A stretch of 51,986 bases of DNA from positions 1 through 51,986 of the forward strand of contig JAHHGS010000091.1 in the NCBI GenBank assembly GCA_019359715.1, written 5' to 3'. Below are positions 5,777-49,911 of this stretch, piece after piece (positions within the stretch are counted from its first letter, which is position 1; each line of letters starts with the position of its first letter). The translations under genes were made by a program, and so were the position numbers. Under the pieces are notes generated by a model. The model saw nothing but the letters and a program-made list of their open reading frames with translations. It was not told where the DNA came from and ran no database searches. Origin of the DNA: Aphanocapsa sp. GSE-SYN-MK-11-07L (lineage in GTDB: Bacteria > Cyanobacteriota > Cyanobacteriia > Thermosynechococcales > Thermosynechococcaceae).

Positions 5777-5979
5777 TTGGAGTGGGAACAACGCACTGAG
5801 CAACGCGGTAGACAAGAAGAAGGGCGATCGCTGATTCTTCGTCAACTCACCCGTCGATTTGGAGCGTTGCCAGTGGAGTTGAGGACTCAAATCGAGGCTC
5901 TATCTCTACCGCAATTGGAAGCGTTAGGAGATGCGCTGCTTGATTTTTCTGAGCTAACCGATTTGGTGAATTGGCTTAG
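5777..5979 (+). pseudogene. DUF4351-domain remnant cut by an IS3 element
   Basis: The open frame encodes a recognisable DUF4351 tail: SLILRQLTRRFGALP, then LSLPQLEALGDALLDF and LTDLVNWLSD. DUF4351 usually ends a longer Rpn/PD-(D/E)XK transposase-nuclease-like protein. Only the tail is present. A TGA at 5774-5776 lies in frame just before the only possible start (TTG 5777). At 5980 the frame runs into the left end of the IS3 element. The upstream nuclease part is absent, so this is a decayed fragment. Confidence 0.7.
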
Positions 5980-6039
5980 TGACCTTGCCCCGAAAAAGTG
6001 GACAATTCCCAAGAGTCGTCAACTCAGGAGCATGTTCAC

Positions 6040-6438
6040 ATGACACAAAAACCGCGCAGGCTATTTACAGACGAGCAGAAGGCTGAGGCCGTCCGCATCG
6101 TCAATCAATCTGGTAAACCCGTGAGCCAGATTGCCAAAGAAATGGGATTAAGCGAAAGCGCTCTGCGCAGATGGGTTCAGCAAGCTCAAATTGACCAGCA
6201 GCCGAACTCTCAAGGGCAACTGACCTCTACTGAACGGAAAGAACTAATTACCTTACGCCGTGACCTGAAACGAGTTCAGATGGAGCGAGATTTCCTAACG
6301 GCAGTGGCTTTAAGCGGGGGAACCCCGCCAACGCCCTGCCTCAAAAAGGCCGCGACCTTCTTGAGGCAGAGCGTTGGGCGGCTTTGCCGACTTGAAGCTA
6401 CTGCCGTTGCTCAGGAAAGCTCCGACCCTTTGAGCTAA
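6040..6438 (+). CDS. IS3 OrfA with two in-frame insertions
   Basis: The product is 132 residues, against about 100 for usual IS3 OrfA proteins. The N-terminal helix-turn-helix is clear (RLFTDEQKAEAVRIV, then MGLSESALRRW), followed by the leucine-zipper-like LRRDLKRVQMERDFL. In the family DFL is followed directly by KKAA.FF. Here 15 extra codons precede KKAATF and another 15 follow it. The ATG at 6040 has a CAGGAG ribosome site 9 bp upstream; an earlier in-frame start at 5998 lies inside the terminal repeat and is unlikely. The normal -1 shift into orfB at AAAAAG (6343-6348) would now hit TGA at 6393-6395, so OrfAB should not form by that route. Confidence 0.75.
   Translation: MTQKPRRLFTDEQKAEAVRIVNQSGKPVSQIAKEMGLSESALRRWVQQAQIDQQPNSQGQLTSTERKELITLRRDLKRVQMERDFLTAVALSGGTPPTPCLKKAATFLRQSVGRLCRLEATAVAQESSDPLS
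6297..6408. repeat. 112-nt imperfect palindrome inside orfA
   Basis: Arm A (6297-6342) and arm B (6363-6408) are both 46 nt and pair at 36 of 46 positions. The outer ends AACGGCAGT and inner ends TGCCTC are best conserved. The 20-nt centre (6343-6362) is the ancestral orfA segment for KKAATF, itself almost palindromic (AAAAAGG...CCTTCTT). The result is one hairpin of about 53-nt arms with a tiny loop. Each added block is 45 nt, preserving the orfA frame. Confidence 0.75.
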
Positions 6439-7452
6439 TTGATGCAGAGAAGGAAAACTTTCCGATTGCCTTGATGTGTAAAGTGCTCAAGCTAGCCAGG
6501 AGTGGCTACTATGCCTGGCTCAATCGCAAACTATCCCCTCGAACTCAGGAGAATGAAATCTTGTCCGAGCAGATTCAACAGATTCATCAAGGGAGCCGTC
6601 AAACCTATGGCTCACCTCGGATTCATGCCGCTTTGGTCGCCAAAGGGTTTCACGTCGGTCGCCAACGGGTGGTTCGGCTGATGGCAAAGCTGGGTATTGG
6701 TGCTCGCCTCAAGCGTAAATACAAGACCACGACTGATTCTGAACATGACTTGCCCATTAGACCTGTTGCTTTATAACGCAAAAAATCGCCGAAACCCTTA
6801 TCGTCACTAGCTTGCAGCCATTGATCATGAAAATCGCCTGGAATGATTGCTCTGCTTGGTTTTCATGGCTTTTTGTGGCTTATTAAGCAACAGGTCTATT
6901 GCAAAGAATGTGCTTGATCGGAATTTCACAACCACAGAACCTGACCGTGCTTGGGTTGCTGATATGACCTATATTTGGACAACAGAAGGATGGCTTTACT
7001 TAGCGGTCATTATCGACTTGTTCTCACGACGGGTGGTGGGTTGGTCAATGGCTGAACATATGCGCACAGAACTGGTCTTGTCGGCGCTAGATGCCGCCTT
7101 GGGGCAGCGCGTACCCTCACTGACTGGATTGGTCTTTCATTCTGACCGAGGCAGCCAATATGCCAGTGGCGACTACCAGACTGCTCTGCACAAAGCTGAG
7201 ATAACCTGTAGTATGAGCCGTCGGGCTAATTGCTGGGATAATGCGGTGGCTGAAAGCTTTTTTGGTACCCTCAAAATCGAGTTGATTTATCCCAGGATCT
7301 TCTCTACAAGAGCGATCGCCCGGACGATCATTGCAGAATGGATTGAGGTGTTCTACAACCGACAGAGGATGCATTCGACTATTGGATATCTTTCCCCTGT
7401 TCAGTTTGAAGCAAATTACTGGAGTACCCTAAATTCCCCGATCGCCGCTTAA
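6396..7452 (+). pseudogene. IS3 OrfB transposase, split by a MITE
   Basis: The orfB frame (-1 relative to orfA) is open from 6396 and shows the typical start FELIDAEKENFP and SGYYAW. It reads to LPI at 6758, is broken by the MITE, and resumes at 6901 as AKNVLDRNFTTTEP in another frame. The rve integrase core is intact in the second part: Asp codon 6961 (ADMTY), Asp 7144 (HSDRGSQY) and Glu 7252 (AESFFGTLK), a DD(35)E spacing. The 142-bp insertion shifts the frame and brings a stop at 6774-6776. Restoring LPI-AK removes the lesion exactly, so the gene was intact when the MITE arrived. Confidence 0.85.
6759..6897. mobile_element. 139-bp MITE inside IS3 orfB
   Basis: Terminal inverted repeats of 18 bp (AGACCTGTTGCTTTATAA at 6759-6776; the reverse complement of 6880-6897 differs at one position) bound 139 bp with no coding capacity. 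It is flanked by direct repeats ATT at 6756-6758 and 6898-6900. Removing the element and one ATT restores an uninterrupted transposase frame (LPI-AK). It must have been moved in trans by a transposase that recognises AGACCTGTTGC ends; none is in this window. Confidence 0.88.
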
Positions 7453-7483
7453 GTTACCTGTCCACTTTTTCGGGGCAAGGTCA

Positions 7484-7517
7484 CTTGGGAATTGTCCACT
7501 TTTTCGGGGCAAGGTCA
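7484..7517 (-). repeat. Stray inverted copy of the IS3 left end
   Basis: These 34 bp are the exact reverse complement of the first 34 bp of the IS3 element (5980-6013), beyond the 25-bp inverted repeat. They directly follow the element's own right end. This is what remains if a second, inverted copy lost everything but its left tip, or the product of an aberrant one-ended event. Confidence 0.85.
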
Positions 7518-7933
7518 ATGCTCCCAAAATCGTCGCTGCCAGACCGCCTGCTCCTTCTGTCCTGAAGCTGAAATCTCTCCTCGCACCTCGTCTGGGCAAT
7601 GTCGCGAAAAAAACGACTTAATCAAACGCCAGCGCATTGAATAATCCGAATCCTCTGCTGGCAACGTCCAAATGCAGACGTTCTGGCAAAACAACTGCTG
7701 CATCAATCCCAAACGGATGTTGCTGCATCGTATACCAGAAAGAAGGATTTAACCAGTGCAGAGATGCCGATGTCTGGAATCACCACTCCAACCGATCGGA
7801 GAACCCAGGCAAGAGGAGGATTTGGTCAGTCGATTTCCTAAAGTGGCTGAGCGATATTAGTGCGGCTTGACCCACCAAAACCTAAAGCTTTCAAGCTTGC
7901 CCAATCAAGACTTTGCGGATTAGCCAACCGCAG
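7518..7933. other. Decayed region between IS3 and topA
   Basis: About 415 bp without a credible gene. Short plus-strand frames break one into another: one of about 40 codons ends at the TAA near 7640, and another reads ADVLAKQLLHQSQTDVAASY and further to a stop near 7840. Their residue make-up looks coding rather than random, suggesting the tail of a lost gene with frameshifts. I do not recognise the family. The last part must hold the 3' end signals of topA. Confidence 0.3.
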
Positions 7934-49745: not shown

Positions 49746-49817
49746 ACTTGGTAGTTTTAGGAGTTACGCAGTTAGATCTCCTAACTCTCTTAAAAAGAGG
49801 GCTTCAGACTTCAAAGT

Positions 49818-49834
49818 CCCCCTTTTTAAGGGGG
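49818..49834. repeat. CCCCC/GGGGG palindromic repeat
   Basis: CCCCCTTTTTAAGGGGG lies in the 166-bp gap between the pstS-like gene and gap, followed by GATTTAGGGGGATC. This motif is a widespread intergenic repeat in filamentous cyanobacteria. It forms a hairpin and could reduce read-through into gap. Confidence 0.6.
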
Positions 49835-49911
49835 ATTTAGGGGGATCGAGGGTTGAGTCTTCAAGTGAGTAGTTCCTAAGTTTACACAGTTCACGTTTAA
49901 GCAAAGAAGGC

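What the first reader, a model, noticed from the sequence alone, without database searches (positions are those of the whole stretch)
6297..6408. Paired 45-nt in-frame insertions build a long palindrome around a conserved IS motif
Two 46-nt arms, 78% complementary, flank the 20-nt segment encoding KKAATF, which is itself near-palindromic. Both additions are 45 nt and keep the orfA frame, yet add a TGA (6393-6395) in the -1 frame. One palindromic element cannot simply insert on both sides of a host segment. Hairpin-templated copying at the native palindrome, or two inverted insertions of one short repeat, could explain it.
Basis: partly seen in the sequence, partly recalled or inferred. Interest (0 to 1): 0.55.

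Follow-up and report, generated by a model that had tools for sequence, protein, structure and literature searches.

The report
Two inverted 45-base hairpin repeat insertions
The long palindrome is two separate, oppositely turned copies of a short wandering hairpin repeat that landed on either side of one spot in a cyanobacterial jumping gene; it is an unusually clear example of a kind of very small mobile DNA that is already known in outline.

Summary
In detail: arms 6298-6342 (+) and 6363-6407 (-), each exactly 45 nt, flank the 20-nt KKAATF segment of an IS3-family orfA. They are two inverted, independent insertions of one 45-nt hairpin repeat. In the same genome other copies of this IS carry only the left arm (C53), only the right arm (C90), both (C91 = window, C96) or neither (C27). 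The family normally lacks both: 20 of 24 readable left sites and 19 of 23 right sites are empty. The right arm is 43/45 identical to Nostoc and Calothrix copies but 35/45 to the left arm, so it was not copied from the left arm. Each arm folds on its own; family members keep the stem through compensatory changes. This genome has 22 family matches; 13 probed genomes have at least 12 to 147. Insertion adds exactly 45 nt with no target duplication at three IS3 sites and in a second host repeat. Left-arm copies are not one clade (AU p 0.0009), and another genus has a variant at the same bond in an IS with open reading frames. The enzyme that moves it is unknown; single-strand (Y1/HUH-type) transposition in trans is my best guess.

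The parts
5980..7483 (+). Degenerate IS3-family element (orfA + orfB, IR ends 5980-6004 and 7459-7483)
   Evidence: Pfam HTH_Tnp_1, HTH_21, rve; inverted ends; related copies in own genome and relatives
5998..6438 (+). orfA reading frame (likely ATG at 6040), open through both 45-nt insertions
   Evidence: frame arithmetic
6298..6342 (+). Left arm: 45-nt hairpin repeat, + orientation, encodes TAVALSGGTPPTPCL in orfA; joint CCTA^ / ^AAAAAGG
   Evidence: absent from C90 and C27, present in C53, C96 and, as a 40/45 variant at the same bond, in G001:C219
6343..6362 (+). Host segment encoding KKAATF (near-palindrome; slippery A-run at its start), target of both insertions
6363..6407 (-). Right arm: 45-nt hairpin repeat in inverted orientation; joint on the minus strand GCA^ / ^AAGAAGG
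   Evidence: also in C96 and C90, remnant in C98; absent from C53 and C27
6393..6395 (+). TGA in the -1 (orfB) frame brought in by the right arm; blocks an OrfAB frameshift product
49814..49843 (-). Empty copy, inside the window, of a second host repeat in which other family members sit (AAATCC^CCCTTAAAAAGG)
   Evidence: filled counterparts

Best explanation
The palindrome is built from two independent insertions, in opposite orientation, of one 45-nt dispersed hairpin repeat (consensus about ACGgCAGTTGCTTCAAGTCGGCAAAGCCGCCCAACGCACTGcCTC). Shown: the two arms occur apart in sister copies of the IS; each insertion adds exactly 45 nt with no target duplication and no loss; each arm folds alone and the family keeps its stem by compensatory changes; the same bond was filled in more than one IS lineage. 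Inferred: the repeat is a non-autonomous mobile element moved in trans as a single-stranded hairpin. The likely agent is a Y1/HUH-type transposase, because zero duplication, orientation and palindrome-edge targets fit that chemistry. The KKAATF segment took two inserts because its near-palindrome offers a similar A-rich joint on both strands (^AAAAAGG and ^AAGAAGG). In orfA the left insert is a tolerated 15-residue addition; the right insert puts a stop in the -1 frame and should abolish the OrfAB fusion. My confidence figure covers the identity and origin of the arms; for the Y1/HUH step alone I would give 0.35.
For: Separate states in one genome: left only C53, right only C90, both C91 and C96, neither C27; C98 keeps the last 6 nt of the right arm. 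Family: 22 matches in this genome, 8 of them in IS3 copies, 10 in a CCCCCTAAATCC repeat, 2 in Uma2 genes, 2 elsewhere; at least 12-147 matches in each of 13 genomes reached through loci (only 150 candidates per genome are scored). Compensatory changes: 7 of 14 pairs, covariation 0.274 against 0.062 in shuffles. No target duplication: IS3 left and right, orfB site against G001, and AAATCC^CCC sites, where empty copies hold the same five C. Right arm 43/45 to L104 (Calothrix) and L028 (Nostoc), 35/45 to left arm. Left-arm copies not one clade: AU p 0.0009 on upstream and 0.0023 on downstream flanks.
Against: The agent of movement is not identified: 5 Y1_Tnp matches lie in the genome but none of the 5 fetched loci holds a family member. 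Arms are identical in copies whose flanks differ by 9-18%, so gene conversion or loop repair between IS copies may have spread them, rather than fresh insertions. C90 and C96 end at contig ends inside the IS, so their states could be assembly errors; C53, C27 and G001:C219 do not have that weakness. The AANAA that follows all three IS3 joints follows 0 of 74 other copies, so the target rule is not general.
Confidence: 0.9

Rival explanations
1. Hairpin-templated copying (template switching) at the native KKAATF palindrome made one arm from the other.
For: The native segment is near-palindromic. Template-switch-like events do occur in sister copies: C27 has a perfect 20-nt inverted repeat where the window and G001 have a diverged one, and C90/C96 carry AAAGGTCGCG just upstream of the site, 9 nt of which are the inverted copy of CGCGACCTT in the site.
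Against: Arms exist apart (C53, C90). Right arm is closer to Nostoc and Calothrix copies (43/45) than to the left arm (35/45), and the arms differ by compensatory stem changes. Both arms belong to a family found at many unrelated places.
Confidence: 0.03
2. One ancestral double insertion, with arms later lost by precise excision, or passed between IS copies by gene conversion or loop repair in heteroduplex DNA.
For: Arms are 45/45 identical among copies whose flanks differ by 9-18%. Right-arm copies are compatible with one clade (AU p 0.455 upstream, 0.272 downstream). C53 shares AAAAAGG after the arm with the window, while its sister C27 (312/317 upstream) has AAGAAGG.
Against: Left-arm copies are rejected as one clade. 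Conversion tracts would have to end within 3 nt (C96) and 6 nt (C53) of the left edge of the arm. The G001 left arm differs at 5 of 45. Empty sites are intact in all other lineages.
Confidence: 0.3
3. The paired hairpins are a functional control of IS3 programmed -1 frameshifting, kept by selection.
For: They sit exactly at the orfA/orfB slippery region; the left insert changes A AAA AAG to C AAA AAG; G001:C219 has a left insert with both ORFs open (131 and 279 aa).
Against: The right arm puts a stop in the -1 frame; the window copy is broken in orfB by a 139-nt insertion; most copies lack both arms; the family occurs at many unrelated places.
Confidence: 0.05

Closest known systems
Small dispersed repeats (SDR) of cyanobacteria, Elhai et al. 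2008 (Genome Res 18:1484; paper not held, recalled; cited in PMC4390886, PMC3116915, PMC2884548)
   Same: Very short, hairpin-forming, compensatory changes, embedded in heptamer arrays and in other small repeats, nested copies, abundant in Nostoc and relatives
   Different: 45 nt here against 21-27 nt as recalled; sequence identity to any named SDR could not be checked because the paper is not held
Rickettsia palindromic elements (RPE; passages in PMC10969869)
   Same: Palindromic selfish repeat that lands in frame inside protein genes
   Different: About 150 bp there against 45 nt; no sequence relation tested; most copies here lie in other repeats, not in genes
REP/REPIN sequences with RAYT (TnpA-REP) transposases (passages in PMC3116915, PMC3733652, PMC6006769)
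   Same: Short imperfect palindromes, dispersed, thought to be moved in trans by Y1/HUH enzymes
   Different: No GTAG or CGTC tag at the foot of the hairpin (sequences); no Y1 gene with a family member beside it
MITEs such as Nezha (named in PMC3733652)
   Same: Non-autonomous, inverted-repeat, no coding capacity
   Different: Much shorter, and no target-site duplication at the sites tested

Membership tests
IS3-family insertion sequence (host element) | orfA HTH + orfB rve integrase core, orfB in -1 frame, inverted ends beginning TG | tested here: met
   HTH_Tnp_1, HTH_21, rve; orfB in -1 frame; IR ends
Cyanobacterial small dispersed repeats (SDR) | dispersed, much under 100 nt, hairpin with compensatory changes | tested here: met
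   rows of the alignment were chosen for at least 7 of 8 outer pairs, which inflates the percentage paired
Cyanobacterial small dispersed repeats (SDR) | size 21-27 nt (recalled) and sequence of a named SDR family | not testable with these tools
   family here is 45 nt; source paper not held
REP/REPIN | GTAG or CGTC tag at one foot of the palindrome | tested here: not met
   sequences begin ACG/GCG and end CTC/CTT
REP/REPIN | cognate RAYT gene flanked by the repeats | tested here: inconclusive
   5 Y1_Tnp matches, 0 family members in the 5 loci (356 bases); the enzyme could act from a distance
MITE of a DDE transposon | target-site duplication | tested here: not met
   net 45 nt and no duplication at IS3 left, right and orfB sites and at AAATCC^CCC sites
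Rickettsia palindromic element | in-frame insertion in protein genes | tested here: inconclusive
   orfA left insert and a Uma2 gene (277 aa, 51-nt in-frame addition against 7 paralogues) are open; the orfB insert starts with a stop; 10 of 22 own copies lie in another repeat

The most novel reading that the evidence does not exclude
A 45-nt hairpin, among the smallest mobile DNAs, inserts with no target duplication at a fixed orientation beside palindromes or A-rich joints (^AANAA in IS3), and has hit the same bond of the IS3 frameshift window independently in different genera, adding exactly 15 codons so that the transposase gene stays open and its frameshift signal is altered.
Probability: 0.2. 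Interest if true: 0.7.

Novelty: new member of a known kind. Interest (0 to 1): 0.42.

Why it matters
One genome holds nearly the whole series (empty, left only, right only, both) of a 45-nt element at one spot, with exact empty sites at several other places. That makes the questions how such tiny repeats move, whether they duplicate the target and what they aim at directly testable; they are abundant in filamentous cyanobacteria and no enzyme has been assigned to them in the papers I could see. It also shows a simple route by which two unrelated insertions make a long palindrome.

Tried and rejected
Hairpin-templated copying was tested by comparing the arms with each other, with the other family members and with sister IS copies, and rejected. 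A target duplication of 7-8 nt in Nostoc copies was considered, because flanks looked repeated; these flanks are heptamer arrays (11 of 74 copies have matching 7-mers on both sides), and where empty sites exist there is none. AANAA as a general target was tested and rejected outside the IS (0 of 74; 15 of 2548 positions inside it). Viral contigs: the core pattern gave 0 matches, and the orfB protein gave no confirmed relative. Plasmids gave only orfB-like IS3 fragments. Rfam: 0 families at gathering score in 5900-7600. Printed sequence: five strings from the repeat gave 0 papers. Other paper searches; only passages by search term were read, of PMC4390886, PMC3733652, PMC6006769, PMC3116915, PMC2884548, PMC551604 and PMC10969869. 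One alignment (A3) had one row in the wrong register and was redone (A4); model R1 rests on A4, whose 36 outside rows are those among 79 distinct contexts that keep at least 7 of 8 outer pairs, four other such contexts (shifted ends) being left out. Copies of the IS that had no locus, and fetched loci that do not span the site, were not counted.

Full report
The thing itself. At 5980-7483 lies an IS3-family element, broken in orfB. Its orfA (ORF 5998-6438) holds two additions around the KKAATF codons. The arms form a 56-nt inverted repeat that is 79% complementary, and the 112 nt fold far better than shuffles (z -8.1).

Two events, not one. Other copies of this IS in the same genome show the steps apart: C53 has the left arm alone, C90 the right arm alone, C96 and the window both, C27 neither, and C98 a deletion that leaves the last six bases of the right arm. 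In 25 copies from this genome and relatives that I could read at one or both sites (24, one more), the left site is empty in 20 of 24 and filled in 4; the right site is empty in 19 of 23, filled in 3 and a remnant in 1. So the family normally lacks the 90 nt. Copies without a fetched locus were not examined.

What inserted. Each arm, read in its own orientation, is a 45-nt repeat: left ACGGCAGTGGCTTTAAGCGGGGGAACCCCGCCAACGCCCTGCCTC, right ACGGCAGTAGCTTCAAGTCGGCAAAGCCGCCCAACGCTCTGCCTC. They share 35 of 45 positions. The right arm shares 43 of 45 with copies in Calothrix brevissima NIES-22 (L104) and a Nostoc metagenome-assembled genome (L028). A third member, 40/45 like the left arm, sits in orfB of C27 and C98. 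Each arm folds alone as DNA: left -14.8 kcal/mol, z -3.5, 0 of 200 shuffles as stable; right -8.3, z -2.0, 8 of 200. In an alignment of 39 members, 7 of 14 stem pairs show changes on both sides, and the covariation score is 0.274 against 0.062 in shuffles and at most 0.062 in slid controls. The rows were chosen for pairing, so the 92% of paired cells is inflated.

How common it is. A pattern with up to 3 mismatches finds 8 copies here; a covariance model finds 22: 8 in IS3 copies, 10 in a second host repeat (CCCCCTAAATCC...), 2 in Uma2 nuclease genes (C89, C133) and 2 elsewhere. Three of them are 69 nt long, which fits a nested 24-nt insertion. Of 38 relatives 6 have one or two matches. Thirteen genomes reached through loci that hold the core have 12 to 147 matches each; as only 150 candidates per genome are scored, these are lower bounds.

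How it inserts. At the left site CCTA^AAAAAGG, the right site (minus strand) GCA^AAGAAGG and the orfB site ATCCC^AACAATT, the addition is exactly 45 nt with no duplicated or lost base. At AAATCC^CCCTTAAAAAGG and AAATCC^CCCAATTCTGGG the filled copies keep two plus three C, and the empty copies of this genome have five C (8 of 9, the ninth with one C to T change; 10 exact and 12 near matches). So it makes no target duplication there either. All three IS3 joints are followed by AANAA, which starts at only 15 of 2548 positions of the IS, but 0 of 74 Nostocales-type copies have it, so this is a lead, chosen after the fact. Several targets lie at the edge of a palindrome; this is my reading of the sequences, not a test.

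Recurrence at one bond. A member of another genus (G001:C219) carries a 40/45 variant at exactly the left bond, in an IS whose orfA (131 aa) and orfB (279 aa) are open. The left-arm copies are rejected as one clade on upstream (AU p 0.0009) and downstream flanks (p 0.0023); right-arm copies are not (p 0.455 and 0.272). C53 and C27 are 312/317 identical upstream though only C53 has the arm; C96 and C90 are 129/130 identical downstream though only C96 has the left arm. Arms are 45/45 identical among copies whose nearest 60 bases differ by 7-18%. Fresh insertion into one hot spot and short-tract conversion between copies both fit this; I cannot separate them.

Consequences. The left insert adds 15 residues in frame and changes the slippery A AAA AAG to C AAA AAG (sequence; the role of this heptamer in IS3 frameshifting is recalled knowledge). 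The right insert adds a TGA in the -1 frame, so a frameshift product would end there. The orfB insert begins with TGA in frame. In the Uma2 gene of C89 the addition is 51 nt and in frame, against 7 paralogues without it. Being in frame is thus partly a by-product of the length.

Mechanism. Zero duplication, fixed orientation and hairpin form fit single-strand transposition by a Y1/HUH enzyme in trans, as proposed for REPINs (PMC3116915, passages read). The genome has five Y1_Tnp matches, but none of the five loci holds a family member. I give this step 0.35. For SDR elements an RNA intermediate has been suggested (Elhai et al. 2008, recalled, not read).

What it is. It is a member of the class of very small mobile cyanobacterial repeats, and the palindrome is an ordinary result of two such insertions. 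The interest lies in the complete series of states, the exact empty sites and the shared bond between genera.

Noticed in passing
window 6759-6897: A 139-nt insertion with inverted ends AGACCTGTTGC/GCAACAGGTCT, flanked by ATT, splits orfB of the IS copy; MITE-like.
   Followed up: partly
window 7484-7517: Directly after the right IR of the IS lies a 34-nt inverted copy of its left end (5980-6013), so the right IR motif occurs twice (7459 and 7493).
   Followed up: no
L006 2150-2196 (G000:C27:6723-6769): orfB of the C27 copy holds a perfect 20-nt inverted repeat where the window and G001 have a diverged version, as expected of hairpin-templated correction.
   Followed up: partly
L004 and L002, just upstream of the orfA site: C90 and C96 carry AAAGGTCGCG in place of AGATGGAGCG; 9 nt of it are the inverted copy of CGCGACCTT in the KKAATF segment, so a template switch at the native palindrome may have happened there.
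   Followed up: partly
L144 1123-1956 (G000:C89): A Uma2-family gene with a family member in frame, 277 aa open, 51 nt longer at this point than 7 paralogues of the same genome.
   Followed up: partly
L150, L152, L153 (G000:C41, C103, C33): Three 69-nt family copies look like the 45-nt repeat with a 24-nt repeat nested in it at one place.
   Followed up: no
G000:C137:21946-22035: Two family members lie head to tail with no base between them inside the CCCCCTAAATCC repeat.
   Followed up: no
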